DNA of 64,000 nucleotides from Corallococcus sp. AS-1-6 (GTDB lineage Bacteria > Myxococcota > Myxococcia > Myxococcales > Myxococcaceae): positions 62,001 to 126,000 of the forward strand of contig NZ_JAIQDE010000002.1 of the NCBI RefSeq assembly GCF_020037015.1, in the 5' to 3' direction. Each line of letters opens with the position of its first letter. The stretch's first letter is position 1. Shown in pieces: positions 5,385-64,000 of the stretch. The notes under the pieces are model-generated. The model saw only the letters and a program-made list of their open reading frames with translations, did no database searches and was not told the DNA's origin. The position numbers and the translations under genes are program-made.

Positions 5385-6161
5385 CTACTCGCCGGGGGCG
5401 ATGATGCCCTCGTCGAGCAACTGCGCGAGGATGCGCGCGGTGTCCAGGCGCGACATGCCGGACAGCGCGAAGAGGTCATCGAAGCTCACCGCGCCGTCAA
5501 TCTGCGCCAGCACGAAGCCCGCGCGGTGGTCCAGGTTGAGCCAGATGATGTCATCCGGCTGCAGCCGCACGCGCGGCATGCGGTGCAGGTCTCCCAGCCG
5601 CGCCTCCAGCATGGACACCAGGATGCGCTCGCTGCGGTCGCGCAGCGCCTCCACGCGCGGGTTCTCCGGCGCCAGGGACTGGGCCCGGCGCAGCAGCTCC
5701 ACCGCGCCGGAGTGGTCATCCAGCGCCAGCAGGTCCTCCGCGCCCCGCAGCAGGCTCTCCACCTCCGAGCCCTCCGGCAGCCCGCCCACCGGCGCGAAGG
5801 TGTCCGGCAGCCCGAACTCCTGCGTGCGGTGCGCCTCCGCGATGAGGTCCAGCGCGTCGCCGCGCATGCCCGTGCCCTCGGGCAGGCTCACGGACTCACG
5901 CAAGGGGGCCACCACCGGGCCGGGCTCGGAGGGGCCGGCCCAGGCGCCCCAGTCCGCCTCCTGATCCGGGCCCGTCAGGTTCCACCCGGTGTCCCCGCCG
6001 TGCTCCGCCAGGCCGTCCCGCCCCAGCAGCCGGCGCGCGCGCGCGTTGGCCGGGTCCAGCTCCAGGGCCCGGGCGAACAGCTTCTCCGCGCCCGCCAGGT
6101 CGCCGCTCAGCCGCAGCAGCAACCCGGCTTCGACCAGCGCCTTGGCCCGGAGCGCGTTCAT
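5385..6161 (-). CDS. TPR protein with a C-terminal winged-helix-like domain, third gene of the DnaK operon
   Basis: A 258-residue soluble protein. Residues 1-55 look like TPR helices (LxxSGDLAGAEKLFARALELDP), and a second TPR-like segment lies around 145-185. The last ~45 residues form a compact domain beginning GFVLAQIDGAVSFDDLF and ending in LLDEGIIAP. The same pattern, with identical spacing, is found near the N-terminus of the DnaJ-like protein two genes upstream. The start codon lies three bases beyond the stop of the dnaK-like gene, implying translational coupling. No catalytic motif is visible. Probable role: adaptor or client selector for the associated Hsp70. Confidence 0.75.
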   Translation of the reverse strand: MNALRAKALVEAGLLLRLSGDLAGAEKLFARALELDPANARARRLLGRDGLAEHGGDTGWNLTGPDQEADWGAWAGPSEPGPVVAPLRESVSLPEGTGMRGDALDLIAEAHRTQEFGLPDTFAPVGGLPEGSEVESLLRGAEDLLALDDHSGAVELLRRAQSLAPENPRVEALRDRSERILVSMLEARLGDLHRMPRVRLQPDDIIWLNLDHRAGFVLAQIDGAVSFDDLFALSGMSRLDTARILAQLLDEGIIAPGE

Positions 6162-6164
6162 CGG

Positions 6165-8012
6165 CTACCTCCCCGGCGTCCCGCGCGAGCCCGCCGAGCG
6201 CAGCAGCGGCAGGCTCTGGGACAGGGCCTCGCAGGCCCGGGTGAGCACGCCCACGTCGTCCGCGCCGCGCGCCTGCCGCGCGGAGTCCAGGGCGGCCTCC
6301 GCGCGGGCGACGACGTCCGGCGGCAGGCCTCCCGCCCCGGGCATGAGCCGCACGCGGGAGAGCGCGTCCACCAGGTCGCGCGCCAGGATGTCCAGCTCCA
6401 CGCGCTTGGACTTCAGCTCCTCCGTGTTGCGCGCCGCCACCAGCCAGTCGCGCTGCTCGTCCATGATGCGGCGCAGCTCGTCCTCCGTCAGGCCGCTGGA
6501 CGCGGTGACGGTGATGGACTGGCGCAGGCCCGTGTCACGGTCGCGCGCGGACACGGACACGATGCCCTCCGCGTTGATGTCGAACGTCACCTCGATCTCC
6601 ACCTGCCCGCGCGGCGCCTCGCGCAGGCCGGTGAGGAGGAACTCGCCCAGCAGCTCGTTGTGGTGCGCGAGCTCGTGCTCGCCCTGGAGCACCATGATCT
6701 TCACCGTGCGCTGGAAGTCCTTGGAGGTGGCGAACACCTCCGTGGCGGACGTGGGCACGGTGGTGTTGCGCGGAATCAGCCGCCGCACGTAGCCGCCCGC
6801 GATGGCCACGCCCATGCTCTGCGGGGTGACGTCCAGGAGCAGCAGCTCGCTCTCGTGGCCCACCAGCGCGTGCGCCTGGATGGCGGCGCCCAGGGCGACC
6901 ACCTCCTCCGCGTGCACGCCCTTGCACGGCTCGCGGCGGAAGTACTGGCGCACCTGCTCCACGATGCGGGGCATGCGCGACATGCCCCCCACCAGGATGA
7001 CCTCCTTCAGGTCCGAGGGGCGCACCTTCGCCTCGCCCAGCACCTCCGAGGTGATGCCCACCAGGCGCTCGCCCAGGTCCGCCGTGAGCTCCTCCAGCTT
7101 CTCGCGGGTGAGCGAGGACTGCAGGTGCAGCGCGGCGCCTCCGCCCGGCGGCGTGCAGATGAAGGGCAGGTGCACCTGCGTCTCCTTCACCGAGGACAGC
7201 TCCACCTTCGCCTTCTCCGCGGCGTCCTTCAGCCGCTGCAGCGCCATGCGGTCCTTGCGCAGGTCGATGCCGTGCTCCTTGGCGAAGCCGAACACCATCC
7301 ACTCGATGATGCGGTGGTCCCAGTCCTCGCCGCCGAGGAAGGTGTCACCGCCAGTGGCCACCACGTCGAAGATGCCGTTGTTGATCTCCAGCACCGACAC
7401 GTCGAAGGTGCCGCCGCCCAGGTCCAGCACGGCGATCTTCCCGTTCACCGTGCGGCCGAAGCCGTAGGCCAGCGCCGCCGCGGTGGGCTCGTTGATGATG
7501 CGCAGGACGTCCAGCCCCGCGATGCGGCCCGCGTCCTTGGTGGCCTGGCGCTGCCCGTCGTTGAAGTAGGCCGGCACGGTGATGACGGCCTGGGTGACGG
7601 GCCGGCCGAAGTGCGCCTCCGCGTCCGCCTTCAGCTCCGCCAGGATCATGGCGCTGACCTCCGGCACGGCGAGGTCGCGGCCCGCCAGCCGGATGCGCAC
7701 GTCGTCGTGCGCGCCGCACACCACCTGGTACGTGAGCGCGCGCAGCGCGTCCTGCACCGGGTGCGAGGAGAACTTGCGGCCGATGAGGCGCTTGGCCGCG
7801 GACACCGTCTCCTGCGGGTTGGTGATGGCCTGCCGCTTGGCGATGCCGCCCACCAGCCGCTTGCCGTTCTTCGACACCGCCACCACGGACGGCGTGAGGG
7901 GCTGGCCGGTGCGGTTCTTGATGATGATGGGCTGACCGTCCTGCACCGTGGCGACGAGGCTGTTCGTCGTCCCCAGGTCGATGCCAATCAGCGGTTCGGG
8001 CTCAGCAGCCAT
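6165..8012 (-). CDS. Hsp70/DnaK-family chaperone (secondary, non-canonical C-terminus)
   Basis: 615 residues. The ATPase domain shows phosphate-1 motif [10 protein letters not shown] (residues 9-18), [26 protein letters not shown] and the adenosine loop [10 protein letters not shown]. The substrate-binding beta domain (about 385-500) includes [14 protein letters not shown]. The C-terminal lid is short and lacks the EEVD-like tail of housekeeping DnaK. No grpE or classical dnaJ is adjacent. Instead it sits between a DnaJ-domain TPR protein and another TPR protein, so this is probably a dedicated Hsp70. In M. xanthus a DnaK homologue, SglK, is needed for social motility and matrix; whether this is its orthologue cannot be settled here. 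Confidence 0.92.
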
Positions 8013-56660: not shown

Positions 56661-56776
56661 AGACACCTGACGGCCCCCGAGCCGTAGGACGACAGTCAGG
56701 GTGACAGCCACGGGTGGGGCGGACACGGAAGTCCCGCCCTGCCCGTCGCCTTTTTTGGGCTAGTGTCCGCGGCGCC

Positions 56777-58039
56777 ATGAACCCGGACGCACTGCGCAAG
56801 GCAACCCCCGAAGAGCAGTTCGAAGAAGTCACTCGCGGCACCGTGGACCTCCACGTGCCGGAGGACCTGAAGAAGAAGCTCCAGCGCTCGTATGACAAGG
56901 GCAAGCCCCTCATCATCAAGGCGGGCTTCGACCCCAGCCGTCCCGACCTGCACCTGGGCCACACGCTGCTGCTCACGCGCATGCGGCGCTTCCAGGAGTT
57001 CGGCCACACGGTGGTCTTCCTCATCGGTGACTTCACCGCGCTCATCGGGGACCCGTCCGGCAAGAACGCCGCCCGGCCTCCGCTCACGCGCGAGCAGGTG
57101 AAGGTCAACTCGGAGACGTACAAGCAGCAGGTCTTCAAGGTCCTGGACCCGGACAAGACGGTGGTGAAGTTCAACTCGGAGTGGCTCGACGCGCTGGGCA
57201 CCGAGGGGATGATCCGCCTGGCCGCGCGCTACTCCGTGCAGCGCATGCTCGAGCGCGACGACTTCAAGAAGCGCTACCGGGAGAACACCTCCATCGCCAT
57301 CCACGAGTTCCTCTACCCGCTCCTGCAGGGCTACGACTCCGTGGCGCTGAAGGCGGACGTGGAGCTGGGCGCGACGGATCAGCTCTTCAACCTGCTCGTC
57401 GGCCGCCAGTTGATGAAGGAAGAGGGCATGGAGCCGCAGGTCATCATGACCGGCCCCATCCTGGAGGGCCTGGACGCGAAGCTGGTGGACGGCGTCATCA
57501 CCGGCAACAAGATGTCCAAGAGCCTGGACAACTACGTGGGCATCGACGAGCCGGCGGACAGCATCTTCGGCAAGTTGATGAGCATCACGGACGACCTGAT
57601 GTGGCGGTACTACAAGCTGCTCTCCGCCATGCCGCTCAAGCAGGTGCTGGAGCTGGAGGAGCAGACGAAGTCCGGCGCGGCGCACCCCAAGGCCGCGAAG
57701 GTCGCCTTCGCGCAGGAGATGGCCGCGCGCTTCCAGGGTGAGGAGGCCGGCCGCAAGGCGGCGGAGGACTTCGAGAAGCGCTTCGCCAAGAAGGAGCTGT
57801 CCACGGAGGACCTGCCGCTCGTGGAGGTGTCGCTTGGCGGCGCGGAGAAGCTGCTCGTCACCAAGCTGCTGCCGGAGACGAAGTTCGTCGCCTCCGCCAC
57901 CGAGGCGCGCAAGATGATGGGCCAGGGCGGCGTGAAGGTGAACGGTGAGAAGGTCACCGACCCCAAGGCGGAGCTGGGGGCCGGCGAGTACACCGTGCAG
58001 GTGGGCAAGCTGAAGGTCACGCGGGTGAAGCTGTCCTGA
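56777..58039 (+). CDS. tyrS: Tyrosyl-tRNA synthetase (TyrZ/TyrRS-2 type)
   Basis: 420 residues from MNPDALR; an earlier in-frame start lacks conservation. Class I motifs HLGH (59-62) and KMSKS (245-249), tyrosine pocket [15 protein letters not shown], and a C-terminal S4 RNA-binding domain (about 350-415). The short linker and overall pattern suit the TyrZ subgroup. A GC hairpin (GGGCGG with CCGCCC near 56720-56745) and TTTTTT near 56752 lie before the gene and may terminate fau. Confidence 0.94.
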
Positions 58040-58049
58040 CGTGACGGAC

Positions 58050-58081
58050 GCCGCCCGGGCCTGCTTCAGGGCGCGGGCGGC
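58050..58081. terminator. Hairpin between tyrS and the convergent SDR gene
   Basis: GCCGCCCG (58050-58057) pairs perfectly with CGGGCGGC (58074-58081). The right arm overlaps the last codons of the SDR gene. Confidence 0.55.
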
Positions 58082-58890
58082 TCCTTCGGCAGCGCGCCTT
58101 CGTACAGCGCGGCCGAGCGCCCCATCATGAAGCCGTGGGGCAGCAGCTTCATCATCGCCGCGAGGAAGCGGTTGAGGACGCCGGGCACGCAGAGCTCGCG
58201 GCGGTGCACGAACGCCTCCACGGCGATGCGCGCGCAGGCCTCCGCGGACATGATGCCCACGTCGCCCGCCTTGAACTTCCGGTCCAGGCCGGACACCGAC
58301 AGCATCTCCGTGGCGATGCCGCCGGGCGCGAAGACGGTGACGGACACGCCCGCCTTGCGCAGCTCGTAGGCCAGGCCCCGCCCGTAGCTGATGACGAACG
58401 ACTTCGACGCGGCGTAGGCCGTCTGGTACGGCAGCGGCGCGAAGCCCGCGGTGCTGGCGACGAGCATCAGCGCCCCGCCCCCGCCCCGCTTCGCGAAGTG
58501 CGCGCCGAAGCGCTGGGACATGCGCACCACGCTGGTGATGTTGGTGGCGAGCAGCGCGTCGAAGGACTCGGGCTGCTGCTCCAGCGCGTGGCCGAAGTAG
58601 GTGACGCCCGCGTTGAGGATGACGCCGTCGACGGTGCGGCCGGACGTGGCGGTCTCGAAGACGCGCTCGGCGTCGCCGGGCTTCGTGAGGTCCGCGGAGA
58701 GGGGCAGCACCTGCACGCCGTGCGCGGACTCCAGCTCCGCCTTCAGCGCGGCGAGCCGGTCCTCGCGGCGGGCCACGGCGATGATGTGGGCGCCGTGCTC
58801 CTTCGCGAGCAGGCGGGCCATCTCCAGCCCCAGGCCGGACGACGCGCCGGTAATGAGCACCCAGCGGCCTCGGAAATTCATCGGTTTCAT
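58066..58890 (-). CDS. Short-chain dehydrogenase/reductase
   Basis: 274 residues from ATG 58890 (a second ATG nine bases on is possible). Classical SDR: TGASSGLG cofactor loop (14-21), NAGVTYFG, Ser in VASTAGF, and YAASK catalytic pair. Basic residues after the first Gly-rich strand (ARREDR) favour NADPH. Substrate unknown; C-terminal region with hydrophobic MMKLLPHGFMMG resembles membrane-associated lipid SDRs. Monocistronic and convergent with tyrS. Confidence 0.9.
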   Translation of the reverse strand: MKPMNFRGRWVLITGASSGLGLEMARLLAKEHGAHIIAVARREDRLAALKAELESAHGVQVLPLSADLTKPGDAERVFETATSGRTVDGVILNAGVTYFGHALEQQPESFDALLATNITSVVRMSQRFGAHFAKRGGGGALMLVASTAGFAPLPYQTAYAASKSFVISYGRGLAYELRKAGVSVTVFAPGGIATEMLSVSGLDRKFKAGDVGIMSAEACARIAVEAFVHRRELCVPGVLNRFLAAMMKLLPHGFMMGRSAALYEGALPKEPPAP

Positions 58891-58976
58891 ATCGGGCGCG
58901 TTTATTTCGCGGCGCGGCGCCGGGCGCAACCGGGGAACAGCGGGCTTGGGGCGCCCCTGTTAGAGTCCGGCCCACC

Positions 58977-60140
58977 ATGCGCCTCTCCGGGTCGCTCGCC
59001 TGCTTCTTCCTGGCCCTCTCCACCGCCCCCGTCGCCTTCGCGGGGAGCGGCGTCTTCGTCACCGAAGAGGCCATGGACGCGGTGGACCAGCCCCAGTCCT
59101 CCAAGGTCGTCTTCTCCGTGCAGCCGGGCGTGTCCTATCCGCTCGTGAAGAAGGGCGGCCCCGACCGCGCGTGGTGCAAGCTCCAGGGGCCCGGGGCCGA
59201 GGGCTGGGTGCTCTGCGATGGCACGCCCACGGAGGCCGTCCAGAAGGCGCCGGACACGGACGCGCTCGTGCGCGCGGACCATGCGAACACGCGCCAGCAG
59301 CAGGTGTCGCGAGGCGGCGGGGCCCTCGCGGAGGCGAAGCCCATCGGGAGCGGAGCCGGTGCGGGTGCGCCCCCTGCGGAGCCGGACGACACGGAAGAGG
59401 TCACCGTGGCGGTGCGCGCACCGGCGAGTCGCGCCGCGGCTCCGGGCGACGCGGCGGCCTGCGCGAGCACGTGTGATCAACCGCCCCTCTTCGCCAAGGC
59501 CCCGGCGCTGTCCGCGCTGGACCGCGAGGTGCTGGACCTGTGCCCCGCGCGCCCCGACGCGAGCGTGAGCGCCGGGGACGTGCAGCGCTTCTTCGCGAAG
59601 CACTACGACGACGCGCGGGTGCAGCGCGCGCTGTCCGCGGCGGGGCGTCCCGGCTCGCGGCAGGCGAACATCGAATGGCTCACGAGCCTGTGGGTGAGCA
59701 CCGGCCCGCGCAACGCGTTCACGCACGTCTTCTGCGGGGATGACTGGCAGCGCGGCCCGATTGGCGGCCTGCACTTCCTGCCCCGCTACGCGCAGCTCGA
59801 GGCGGAAGGCAAGGTCTGCTACCAGGGCCCGGCCCGGGGCGAGGACGCCGTGCGCGGCGAGCAGTACCTCATCCGCTTCAAGGGGCTGTCCCCGTGGTCC
59901 TGCGGCGTGAAGCGCACGGGCGGCTTCTCCACGTCGCAGGACGCGGTCTCCATCGCCGCCATCGGGACCCGGGCGTTCGCGCGCTGCTGTGCGCGCGGCG
60001 GGGCGAAGAAGGAGGGCGGCGTGTACTCGGCGCCGGACGTGGGCGGCGGCAACTGGCGCATCTGGTGCGGCACGCGCAACGGCACCTACGGCATCGCCAC
60101 GCTGCACCCCACCGACGAAGCCGCCACCTGCGCGGAGTAG
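58977..60140 (+). CDS. Secreted EndoU-like endoribonuclease
   Basis: 387 residues. Signal peptide to about residue 22 (AFA-GS); a small SH3-like domain with paired Cys (AWCKLQ...GWVLCD) at about 40-82; a Pro/Ala linker; and a C-terminal EndoU-like domain from about 175. There, His250 in FTHVFCGDDW, His266 in GGLHFLPRY and Lys312 have spacings (16 and 46) identical to the H162/H178/K224 triad of Xenopus XendoU as I remember it. Also Asp255 sits five residues after the first His, where XendoU has Glu167. Uridylate-specific RNA cleavage is the family activity. No immunity gene is evident. Confidence 0.75.
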   Translation: MRLSGSLACFFLALSTAPVAFAGSGVFVTEEAMDAVDQPQSSKVVFSVQPGVSYPLVKKGGPDRAWCKLQGPGAEGWVLCDGTPTEAVQKAPDTDALVRADHANTRQQQVSRGGGALAEAKPIGSGAGAGAPPAEPDDTEEVTVAVRAPASRAAAPGDAAACASTCDQPPLFAKAPALSALDREVLDLCPARPDASVSAGDVQRFFAKHYDDARVQRALSAAGRPGSRQANIEWLTSLWVSTGPRNAFTHVFCGDDWQRGPIGGLHFLPRYAQLEAEGKVCYQGPARGEDAVRGEQYLIRFKGLSPWSCGVKRTGGFSTSQDAVSIAAIGTRAFARCCARGGAKKEGGVYSAPDVGGGNWRIWCGTRNGTYGIATLHPTDEAATCAE

Positions 60141-60188: not shown

Positions 60189-63100
60189 CTACTGTGCCTT
60201 GTCCACGGTGAGCACCGCGCCCGTGGAGTAGGCGGTGAACTCCGGCGCGTACACGGACTGCACCGTCGCCGGGCCCACGCGGAACGTCCCCGCCATGTTC
60301 GCGCGCAGCCGGTACTTGAAGGTGTACTCACCGGCCGGCAGCGACTCGAAGAAGAAGTTCGTCCCCGAGTCGCGCGTCTCCTCGTACCAGACGATGCCCA
60401 GGTCCCACTTGTGGCGGGACTGCGCGTTCTCCGGCTCCAGGCCCGCGGCGCGGGGGTCCCTCAGGTGCACGTACTCGGCGGCGTGCTTCGTGCGCAGCGA
60501 CAACTGCACCTCCACCTCGTCGCCGGGCCGCAGCCTCGCGCCGTCCGACAGGGGGCGCAGCAGCGTCTGGTTGCCTTCGCGGAGGCGCACGAAGTAGCGG
60601 CGCGACACCTGGAAGAAGTCGCCGCGCTCCTCCTTGGGAAGCTGCTCCGTGGAGAAGTGCCACGTGGCGGACGCGATGGCGAAGCCCGGCGTCGTCTTCT
60701 CCACCACCGTGGTCGCCGTGCTCGCGTTCACCTCCGGGCCGGGGACGACGATCTGGTTCTTCTTCCCCGTGTACACGTCCGGCGAGAAGCTCAGGGCCAC
60801 CGCCTTGGAGCCCACCGTCACCTTCAGCTCCTCGCGCGCGGCCAGCGAGCCCTCCGCCTCCATGTAGTTCACCAGCGCGTAGAGCGCCTCCGCCGTGGCG
60901 CGGGTGGACTTCCAGTGGTTCACCTTCTTGTCGAGCAGCAGGTACTGCACCAGGCCCGCGCGGCGGGGGTCCTTCGGGCGCAGCTCCGACAGCGTGCGCA
61001 GCGCGAAGGCGTGCGTCTCCGTGGAGTCGTTGTACCAGAGCCAGCCGCGGTCCTCCGGCGCCCAGTACGTGCCCAGGTCCTGTGACGTCTTCGCGGAGTC
61101 CATCACGCTGTCCCAGACCTTCTGCGCGTCCTTCGTGCGCTTCGACCGGTTCAGCGTGAGCGCCAGGTACCCCTTGAGGTACGGCGAGTGTTGCTTCCAG
61201 TGCTTGAAGGAGAACTCGAGCATCCGCTGCCGCTCGGCCGCGGTGAGCGCCTCGCCCGTGTAGCGCGCGTCCGGGTACGCGGACGCCACGAAGTTGAGGA
61301 ACGTGAGGAACTCCCAGCCCAGGTCCTTCTTCATCAGCCGGTTCGCGTAGTCGTCCCGGAAGTGCTTCGCCAGGTAGCCCCACGCGGGCTCCGTCATGGA
61401 GGGCGACACCTCCACGCCGTGCTCCATGGCGCGCGACAGGCCGTGCAGGATGTAGAGCGTCATGTACGGCGACGACGGGCCGCCCGGCCACCAGGGGAAG
61501 CCGCCGTCCGCGTTCTGTGCCTTGCGCAGCTTCTGCTGCGACGACATGCGCTGGGCCTGGGCCACCTTCGGATCCAGCACGCGCAGGAGCGCCTCGTCGT
61601 TGCCCGTCCCGCCCTTCGCCTCGTTGAGCCAGGGCGTCTCCTCCAGCGCCATCTTCCGGTTGGGGTCCGCGTCGTCGAAGGTCTCGAAGCGCGTGGTCCG
61701 CTGGCTCAGGTCCTTCGCCACCTTCGCCACGGCCGGATACTTGTCGAAGAGGCTGGAGACGATGCCCGTGGACACGAAGCGGTTGAGGGTCTGCTCCGTG
61801 CACTCATAGGGGTAGTCCACCAGGTACGGCAGCGCCTGGAGCACGGAGTAGAAGAGCTGCGCGTCCACCGTCACGACGAGCTGCTCGTTCACGCGGGTGG
61901 GGTCGTCCGACTTCTTCAGGTCCTCGAACGTCAGCGTCCGGCGGTCCTGGTTGTTCAGCATGGCGAAGCGCGACTGCGACAGGTGCATGCGGCCGGGCAG
62001 CACCGGCAGGGGCCGCAGCTCGCCGTCGCTGAACGCGCCCGTCTTCGCGACCACGCGGAAGGCCACCGGCCCCACCCGCGCGAGCGTGGTGATGGGGAAG
62101 CGCAGGTGCGTGCCCTTCCCCGCCGCCACCGTGAAGGCCTGAGAGGCCGTCTTCACGCCGAAGTCCGCGAGCAGGCTCTTCTGCGTGTCCGGATCCACGA
62201 TGTCGAGCGTGAGCTGGCCCTGCTGCGGCTGGGTCCCCGCGTTGTTCACCACGACCTCCAGCTCCGCGCGGTCGCCCTCGCGCAGGAAGCGCGGCAGGTA
62301 GGGGCGCACCATCAGCTCCTTCACGCTGCGGGTGGCGCGCTGCGTGGAGCCCCCGCGCAGATCCCGCGTGAGCGCGTGCACCCAGACGTCCCACGCCGTC
62401 ACCGAGTCCGGCACCGTGAACTCCAGCACCGCGGCCCCGTCCGGCCCGGTGAGCAGTTGCGGAATCCAGAACGCCGTCTCCGCGAAGTTCGAGCGCAGCG
62501 GCTCCTCCGACCCTTCCCCCGGCTCCGGTGCGCCGGGCGCCCCCTTGATGATCTGGATGATCTCACGCCGCTTCTGCTCCAGCACCCGGCCCTCCTTCGG
62601 CGCGGAGGCCATGGACGGCGCGGGCGCGGGCGGAGGAGGTGGCGGCGCGGCGTCCGCCTCCGGCTGGATGCCTCCGGGCTTCGCGGCCGTGGCGCGCATG
62701 CGGCGGCCCACTCCGCCGTAGTAGTTGCGGTAGCCCGGACCGCCCAGCCCGTAGCCCTCCCCGAACCTCAGCGTGTCGGCGCTGAGGTCCGGCGCGTCGG
62801 GTCCGTCCCGGACCAGATCGTCGGAGAGCCAGTCCGCGCCGAAGACACCACCGGACGCCCGGATGTCCACGTAGACGGTCTGCTGCGGATACAACTGCGC
62901 CACCTGCGGCGGCGTGTGCGGGCCGAAGACGTTCAGCGACTGATCGTACATGTACGCGAGCAGCTCCGCGGCCCCCGCCTCCAGCTTCGCGCCCTGGGGC
63001 CCCTTCACCGTCACGCGGAAGGTCTCCTTCGCGCCGGGCCGCAGCGTGTCCCGGAACGTGGCGAACTCCAGGCTCAGCTCCTTGTCGTCGAAGGGCACGG

Positions 63101-64000
63101 CCACCGTCTGCTGGAAGCTCAGCGACTGCCAGTCGCGCACCATCGTGAGCACCACCGTGAAGCCGCCGCGCAGGGACTCCGTCACCGGCAGCTCCACCAC
63201 CGCGCGCCCCTGCCCCGCCGTCAACTGGCGGTGCTCGACGCGCTGGCGCCCCTGGTACACGTCCAGCATCAGCGGCTGGCCCTCGAAGCCGGAGGCCACC
63301 ATCAGCCGGGCCACCTCGCCCACGCGCACGGAGGCGCGCTCCGCCGCCAGCACCGCGGGCAGCCCCGCCGGAGCCCGGGCTCCCGCCACCACGAAGTCCC
63401 GCTGCGCGGTGGCCTTCTGACCAAACGGATCCGTCGTCTCGTAGCGCAGGCGGTACGCCCCCGCGCGCAGCGCTGGCAGCTTCACGGTGGCCACCCCGTC
63501 CGCGCCATGCGTCACCGCCGCCTGCGCCACCTCCGCGCCGTCGTCCCAGCGCTGCAGCGTCTGCTCCACGTCGTAGCTCGTGTCCCAGCGCGCCTTGAGC
63601 GAATCCCCCGGCGTGGGGGAGGTCTCCTTGAGCGACTGCGCGTCCGCGTCCAGGGGCTTGGGCCTGTCCACCGGGACCTCCGACGGCATCAGCGGCCGGC
63701 CCGGAGCCTTCAGGGCGATGAGCCGCCAGCGGCCCGGTCCGGCCTGCGGCGCGCCATCCAGGTTCGAGCGGACGAGCCGCACCTCCGACGGGAAGTCCTC
63801 GCGGACGAAGCCCACGTCGGAGTCCACGCGGCCCTCCACCGACACGAAGCCCAGGCGGAAGGCGCGGGTCGCGGAGCGCGTCTCACCGCCCTCGTCCGTC
63901 AAGTCCGCCTCCACGCGGTAGCGCCACGACATGCCCTGCGCCTTCGCGAGCCGCTCGTCCGCCTCCGGGGTGAACGCCACGGTGAAGCCGCCGTCCTCCC
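60189..64000 (-). CDS. Bacterial alpha-2-macroglobulin family protein, 5' end outside window
   Basis: The frame is open to base 64000; about 1270 residues are visible and the N-terminus (signal, first macroglobulin domains) is missing. Seen from the cut end: macroglobulin-type beta domains, a Pro/Ala-rich bait-like insert with GEGYGLGGPGYRNYYGG and EPGEGSEEP, then the A2M core with FAETAFWIPQLLTG...VTAWDVWVHALT, and the complement-like helical domain containing ECTEQ, matching the CxEQ thioester motif. The C-terminus is a receptor-type beta domain ending in LTVDKAQ. Such periplasmic proteins trap attacking proteases. No penicillin-binding protein partner (pbpC) is seen on this side. Confidence 0.9.
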   Translation of the reverse strand, partial: EDGGFTVAFTPEADERLAKAQGMSWRYRVEADLTDEGGETRSATRAFRLGFVSVEGRVDSDVGFVREDFPSEVRLVRSNLDGAPQAGPGRWRLIALKAPGRPLMPSEVPVDRPKPLDADAQSLKETSPTPGDSLKARWDTSYDVEQTLQRWDDGAEVAQAAVTHGADGVATVKLPALRAGAYRLRYETTDPFGQKATAQRDFVVAGARAPAGLPAVLAAERASVRVGEVARLMVASGFEGQPLMLDVYQGRQRVEHRQLTAGQGRAVVELPVTESLRGGFTVVLTMVRDWQSLSFQQTVAVPFDDKELSLEFATFRDTLRPGAKETFRVTVKGPQGAKLEAGAAELLAYMYDQSLNVFGPHTPPQVAQLYPQQTVYVDIRASGGVFGADWLSDDLVRDGPDAPDLSADTLRFGEGYGLGGPGYRNYYGGVGRRMRATAAKPGGIQPEADAAPPPPPPAPAPSMASAPKEGRVLEQKRREIIQIIKGAPGAPEPGEGSEEPLRSNFAETAFWIPQLLTGPDGAAVLEFTVPDSVTAWDVWVHALTRDLRGGSTQRATRSVKELMVRPYLPRFLREGDRAELEVVVNNAGTQPQQGQLTLDIVDPDTQKSLLADFGVKTASQAFTVAAGKGTHLRFPITTLARVGPVAFRVVAKTGAFSDGELRPLPVLPGRMHLSQSRFAMLNNQDRRTLTFEDLKKSDDPTRVNEQLVVTVDAQLFYSVLQALPYLVDYPYECTEQTLNRFVSTGIVSSLFDKYPAVAKVAKDLSQRTTRFETFDDADPNRKMALEETPWLNEAKGGTGNDEALLRVLDPKVAQAQRMSSQQKLRKAQNADGGFPWWPGGPSSPYMTLYILHGLSRAMEHGVEVSPSMTEPAWGYLAKHFRDDYANRLMKKDLGWEFLTFLNFVASAYPDARYTGEALTAAERQRMLEFSFKHWKQHSPYLKGYLALTLNRSKRTKDAQKVWDSVMDSAKTSQDLGTYWAPEDRGWLWYNDSTETHAFALRTLSELRPKDPRRAGLVQYLLLDKKVNHWKSTRATAEALYALVNYMEAEGSLAAREELKVTVGSKAVALSFSPDVYTGKKNQIVVPGPEVNASTATTVVEKTTPGFAIASATWHFSTEQLPKEERGDFFQVSRRYFVRLREGNQTLLRPLSDGARLRPGDEVEVQLSLRTKHAAEYVHLRDPRAAGLEPENAQSRHKWDLGIVWYEETRDSGTNFFFESLPAGEYTFKYRLRANMAGTFRVGPATVQSVYAPEFTAYSTGAVLTVDKAQ

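What the first reader, a model, noticed from the sequence alone, without database searches (positions are those of the whole stretch)
58977..60140. Secreted EndoU-like ribonuclease with catalytic triad spacing as in XendoU
His250, His266 and Lys312 repeat the 16- and 46-residue spacing of the XendoU catalytic residues, inside FTHVFCGD...GGLHF. Bacterial EndoU domains are usually toxins at the end of large polymorphic systems with immunity genes. Here a small stand-alone secreted protein carries an N-terminal SH3-like domain and no immunity partner, suggesting a predation factor or extracellular RNA scavenger. A signal peptide removes the need for cytoplasmic immunity.
Basis: partly seen in the sequence, partly recalled or inferred. 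Interest (0 to 1): 0.6.

Follow-up and report, generated by a model that had tools for sequence, protein, structure and literature searches.

The report
Secreted animal-like EndoU ribonuclease in myxobacteria
A predatory soil bacterium and its relatives carry an apparently exported, cysteine-rich RNA-cutting enzyme whose predicted shape resembles the animal enzyme EndoU more than the EndoU toxins of other bacteria, yet lacks two residues that make the human enzyme depend on calcium.

Summary
The 387-aa ORF at 58977-60140 has a signal peptide, an SH3-like domain, a variable linker and a C-terminal EndoU domain (Pfam EndoU_bacteria, 30.4 vs cut-off 25.3 bits). H250, H266 and K312 repeat XendoU's 16/46 spacing. 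The domain alone models well (pLDDT 88.6, pTM 0.88). Its best structural matches are human EndoU (Z 17.9, 201 residues) and XendoU (Z 16.3, 197), including their N-terminal helical extension; a bacterial CdiA EndoU toxin matches only the core (Z 8.2, 124).

It is single-copy and syntenic (tyrS upstream), found in 66 of 96 Myxococcaceae genomes plus two others, under strong purifying selection, with no conserved immunity partner: a vertically inherited exported protein, not a polymorphic toxin. Twelve cysteines are nearly invariant. The human calcium-site residues E284 and D179 have no acidic counterpart here (T249, T165), so I predict calcium-independent activity. In four genomes of one genus H250 is Tyr, a likely inactive sub-clade. 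Most likely role: an exported uridylate-preferring RNase digesting prey or environmental RNA. RNase activity, export and role are inferred, not shown. New variant of a known kind.

The parts
58977..60140 (+). whole ORF, 387 aa plus stop; SH3-EndoU exported protein
   Evidence: orthologues
58977..59042 (+). Sec-type signal peptide, residues 1-22 (AFA before GS)
   Evidence: read from sequence and similar N-termini in orthologues; no signal-peptide program was available
59055..59231 (+). SH3-like domain, residues about 27-85, with Cys67 and Cys80
   Evidence: model and weak SH3 matches; Cys conservation
59232..59456 (+). low-confidence variable linker, residues about 86-160
   Evidence: pLDDT under 50 at 86-163; length varies in alignment
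59460..59693 (+). N-terminal helical extension of the EndoU domain, residues 162-239, as in human EndoU/XendoU
59694..60137 (+). EndoU catalytic core, residues 240-387
   Evidence: PF14436 residues 245-337; model
59721..59723 (+). T249, at the place of human calcium-site residue E284
   Evidence: E284 role from PMC11275989
59724..59726 (+). H250, first catalytic His
59772..59774 (+). H266, second catalytic His
59910..59912 (+). K312, catalytic Lys
60099..60107 (+). T375-L-H377, the S/T-x-Y(H) motif, aligned with S-x-Y of a bacterial XendoU
58066..58929 (-). neighbour: short-chain dehydrogenase; among loci checked, seen next to EndoU only in the Corallococcus ones
56714..58039 (+). neighbour: tyrosyl-tRNA synthetase, conserved upstream gene
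60189..63980 (-). neighbour: bacterial alpha-2-macroglobulin, convergent

Best explanation
It is an exported, probably disulphide-stabilised endoribonuclease of the EndoU superfamily, built on the animal-type (XendoU-like) version of the domain with its N-terminal helical extension and joined to an SH3-like module. The protein is secreted through Sec, oxidised in the periplasm, and cleaves single-stranded RNA, probably at uridylates, by RNase-A-like His-His-Lys catalysis outside the cytoplasm. Because it becomes active only after export, the producer needs no immunity protein. It most likely degrades RNA released from lysed prey or environmental cells for nutrition, alongside an RNase T2. Activity should not need calcium. 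Shown: family, fold match, conservation, synteny, absence of a partner. Inferred: export, disulphides, RNase activity, base preference, calcium independence, role.
For: Pfam PF14436 above cut-off. Domain model pLDDT 88.6, best matches human EndoU and XendoU. Profile match to a bacterial PF09412 XendoU, prob 92.2, E 5.9e-7, 176 columns spanning extension and core, with both His, the Lys and the S/T-x-Y motif in register. H266 and K312 47/47, H250 43/47; twelve cysteines 45-47 of 47. Signal-like N-termini in the aligned orthologues. dN/dS 0.07-0.14 in the EndoU domain for 5 Corallococcus pairs. tyrS upstream in 27 of 30 loci. A second exported-looking RNase, of family T2, in the same genome.
Against: No biochemical, expression or secretome evidence. 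The XendoU Pfam model gave no hit for this protein. In Corallococcus the usual Tyr of the last motif is His (23 H, 23 Y, 1 F of 47), which may alter uridine recognition. Four genomes have H250Y in their single orthologue, so catalysis may be dispensable in some lineages. Not found in 30 of 96 family genomes (some incomplete), so not essential for the predatory lifestyle.
Confidence: 0.6

Rival explanations
1. A predation or competition toxin: the RNase is delivered into prey cells, the SH3-like module binding the prey wall, and kills by cutting RNA inside them.
For: EndoU is a common toxin domain (PMC3482391, PMC9990079, passages); the organism belongs to a predatory group; SH3-like module.
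Against: No delivery domain, immunity gene, hypervariable C-terminus or mobile context; fixed locus and strong purifying selection. RHS-EndoU toxins exist separately in two family genomes.
Confidence: 0.18
2. A periplasmic housekeeping RNase (RNase I-like) that recycles or guards against RNA in the envelope or the extracellular matrix, without a predation link.
For: Single copy, vertical, next to tyrS in most genera.
Against: Not found in 30 of 96 family genomes; RNase T2 already present.
Confidence: 0.17
3. A non-catalytic RNA-binding or structural protein that keeps the EndoU fold.
For: H250Y sub-clade under continued purifying selection (dN/dS 0.13-0.27 in 4 pairs); Y to H at 377 in Corallococcus.
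Against: Full triad in 43 of 47, including this protein.
Confidence: 0.05

Closest known systems
Animal EndoU: human ENDOU (9ftw) and Xenopus XendoU (2c1w), Pfam PF09412
   Same: Fold over about 200 residues including the N-terminal helical extension; 16/46 triad spacing of XendoU; at least one animal member, ENDU-2, is secreted (title of PMC7904951)
   Different: Below detection by the Pfam XendoU model; E284 and D179 calcium residues replaced; many cysteines; SH3-like rather than somatomedin-B domain (the latter recalled)
Bacterial EndoU toxins, Pfam PF14436 (CdiA-CT STECO31, MafB, BC_0920; names from PMC9990079)
   Same: Pfam EndoU_bacteria match above cut-off; EndoU core
   Different: Not the C-terminus of a large polymorphic protein, no immunity gene, extra N-terminal extension, signal peptide; STECO31 aligns only over model residues 79-218
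Coronavirus Nsp15 C-terminal domain
   Same: Core fold (Z about 13 over 144-146 residues)
   Different: Lower structural score than animal EndoU; viral replicase protein
Bacterial XendoU with lamin-tail domain, L119 8516-9841 (G027)
   Same: Profile match over extension and core
   Different: PF09412 at 213.6 bits; keeps both calcium-site acids; no evident signal peptide or SH3-like domain

Membership tests
EndoU superfamily | EndoU fold | tested here: met
   model mf17b91a3bdf2 against PDB
EndoU superfamily | His-His-Lys catalytic residues in register | tested here: met
EndoU superfamily | RNA cleavage, preferring uridylates | not testable with these tools
   needs an RNase assay
Pfam PF14436 EndoU_bacteria | score above the curated cut-off | tested here: met
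   30.4 vs 25.3 bits
Polymorphic EndoU toxin | C-terminal domain of a large secreted repeat or delivery protein | tested here: not met
   387-aa protein; contrast L042 and L107 RHS proteins
Polymorphic EndoU toxin | adjacent immunity gene | tested here: not met
   47- and 48-base gaps to flanking genes; no conserved partner
Pfam PF09412 XendoU | score above the curated cut-off | tested here: not met
   no hit up to E 10 for this protein; 2 of 13 A1 members hit, best E 0.047
Animal-type EndoU | N-terminal helical extension packed on the core | tested here: met
   201 of 226 model residues align with 9ftw, so at least 53 of the first 78; profile alignment begins in the extension
Animal-type EndoU | calcium-site residues E284 and D179 | tested here: not met
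   position 249 is T in 46 of 47 (E in L087); position 165 is T, R, S or E, never D; the pairing of 165 with D179 rests on a PLF anchor and is less sure

The most novel reading that the evidence does not exclude
The helical extension called eukaryote-specific and tied to calcium sensing is present in a bacterial exported EndoU family without the calcium residues. It would then be an older structural part of the enzyme, with calcium control added on the animal line (or lost here), and myxobacteria would carry a calcium-free, disulphide-locked counterpart of animal EndoU used outside the cell.
Probability: 0.35. Interest if true: 0.65.

Novelty: new variant of a known kind. Interest (0 to 1): 0.5.

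Why it matters
EndoU in bacteria is described mainly as a delivered toxin with an immunity protein. Here it looks like a fixed, exported enzyme with the animal architecture. It offers a natural test of whether the N-terminal extension is enough for calcium control of EndoU, and a candidate secreted RNase in a predatory group; its H250Y sub-clade is a natural catalytic-loss comparison.

Tried and rejected
NCBIfam and the single-sequence PDB search gave nothing useful; the calmodulin row and the geopilin row look like chance. No relatives in viral contigs (18 stretches matched a pattern, none confirmed), plasmids or phages. The first full-length model was poor (pLDDT 65.0), so the domain was refolded alone. 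I considered the acidic residue at H+5 (D255, human E290) as a calcium-switch signature and dropped it: an RHS-EndoU toxin has an acid there too (L042). G001 (same genus, no match) is not counted as evidence of gene loss: tyrS gave no match there either, although the tool warns that an empty answer alone shows nothing. The hhalign misses to L042 and L107 used single full-length proteins and are weak negative controls. Small-ORF clusters look like shadow frames of EndoU or of downstream genes. Papers: the name searches listed no paper evidently about a myxobacterial EndoU; of their listings I read only passages of PMC9990079. Passages of PMC3482391 list Tox-EndoU in many phyla but not delta-proteobacteria. 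Relatives outside Myxococcota could not be searched systematically: the one genome-contig scan confirmed 10 loci, all named as Corallococcus, Pyxidicoccus or a Myxococcaceae MAG.

Full report
Observation. The ORF 58977-60140 (+) encodes 387 aa. Pfam assigns EndoU_bacteria (PF14436) at E 5.6e-7. It is the only PF14436 match in its genome.

Source and distribution. Named relatives are Corallococcus species, one Myxococcaceae MAG and Pyxidicoccus fallax. In 195 Myxococcota genomes the EndoU-domain profile matched 68: 66 in the window's family, one in the same order (G143) and one elsewhere in the phylum (G137), one match each. By PF14436, 64 of 96 family genomes matched at E 0.01, 57 over the cut-off. 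No relatives were found in plasmids, phages or viral contigs at the sensitivity used.

Conservation. I aligned 47 distinct proteins from the loci fetched; the rest of the 68 matched genomes were not aligned. H266 and K312 are 47/47; H250 is 43/47, Tyr in L022, L092, L093 and L094. These four come from G030, G073, G074 and G075, four of the seven genomes of genus g16 searched, each with one copy. Position 375 is T or S in all 47; 377 is H in 23, Y in 23, F in 1. Twelve cysteines of the SH3-like and EndoU parts are kept in 45-47 of 47, which points to an oxidising compartment; L086 and L087 show no SH3-like part, so their letters at positions 67 and 80 are alignment chance. dN/dS for the EndoU domain is 0.07-0.14 in five Corallococcus pairs and 0.13-0.27 in four H250Y pairs.

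Fold. The full-length model is weak (pLDDT 65.0), but Foldseek already ranked XendoU first. The domain 162-387 modelled from 28 sequences has pLDDT 88.6 and pTM 0.88. Foldseek ranks human EndoU and then XendoU first (E 1.3e-9 and 6.0e-6). VIA-align gives human EndoU Z 17.9 (rmsd 3.1, 201 residues), XendoU Z 16.3 (3.1, 197), Nsp15 about 13 (2.7, 146) and CdiA-CT STECO31 8.2 (3.5, 124). With 201 of 226 residues aligned, at least 53 of the first 78, the helical extension, must match human EndoU.

Animal-type resemblance. One family genome (G027) carries a full PF09412 XendoU (214.8 bits; 213.6). The EndoU profile of this family aligns to it over 176 columns, prob 92.2, E 5.9e-7, with triad and S/T-x-Y in register. 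The same comparison with two RHS-EndoU toxins gave prob 0.1 (weak controls). Against this, Pfam places the window protein in PF14436 and not in XendoU. L087 of G137 scores above the XendoU cut-off (52 vs 32.3) and just below that of PF14436 (24.6 vs 25.3), so it is a bridging sequence. PF09412 itself rang in only 2 of 195 phylum genomes.

Calcium. PMC11275989 (passages and section 26) reports that human EndoU needs calcium at sites using E284 and D179, calls the N-terminal extension eukaryote-specific, and names H285, H300 and K343 as catalytic. E284 precedes the first His; here that place is T249, T in 46 of 47. D179 lies six residues before the Leu of a PLF motif; here position 165 is T, R, S or E, never D. 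The G027 XendoU keeps both acids. I therefore predict calcium-independent activity; this is inference.

Locus. tyrS lies upstream in 27 of 30 loci, and A2M within the fetched flank in 21 of 30 (L041 and L099 are the same contig). In the five Corallococcus loci of that set an SDR gene sits between tyrS and EndoU, as in the window. The window has 47 and 48 bases between EndoU and its neighbours, leaving no room for an immunity gene, and no conserved small-ORF partner emerged. Polymorphic RHS-EndoU proteins are present elsewhere in G070 and G072, showing the contrast within the family.

Mechanism. Sec export (read from the sequence, not tested by a program), oxidative folding, and transphosphorylation by two His and a Lys as in RNase A (mechanism from passages of PMC3482391 and PMC11275989). 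RNA digestion outside the cell is the best guess for its role; the genome also encodes a lipoprotein-like RNase T2.

Noticed in passing
L022 1162-2226, L092 5405-6469, L093 5189-6256, L094 5192-6256: Single-copy orthologues with the first catalytic His replaced by Tyr but otherwise intact and under purifying selection.
   Followed up: partly
L119 8516-9841 (-): Full-length PF09412 XendoU fused to a lamin-tail domain in a Myxococcaceae genome (910 contigs, 4% contamination, so the contig's origin is not certain), next to a metallo-beta-lactamase-fold gene.
   Followed up: partly
L087 6184-7101 (-): Lipoprotein-like XendoU-type protein (GFEHVLCGE) that also nearly reaches the EndoU_bacteria cut-off.
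   Followed up: partly
L107 6220-11874 (-), L042 1489-2415 (-): RHS-repeat proteins ending in an EndoU toxin domain in two myxobacterial genomes; L107 has a 154-aa ORF just downstream (5754-6218) that may be its immunity gene.
   Followed up: no
L121 5358-6425 (+): RNase T2 protein with a lipobox-like N-terminus in the window's own genome.
   Followed up: no
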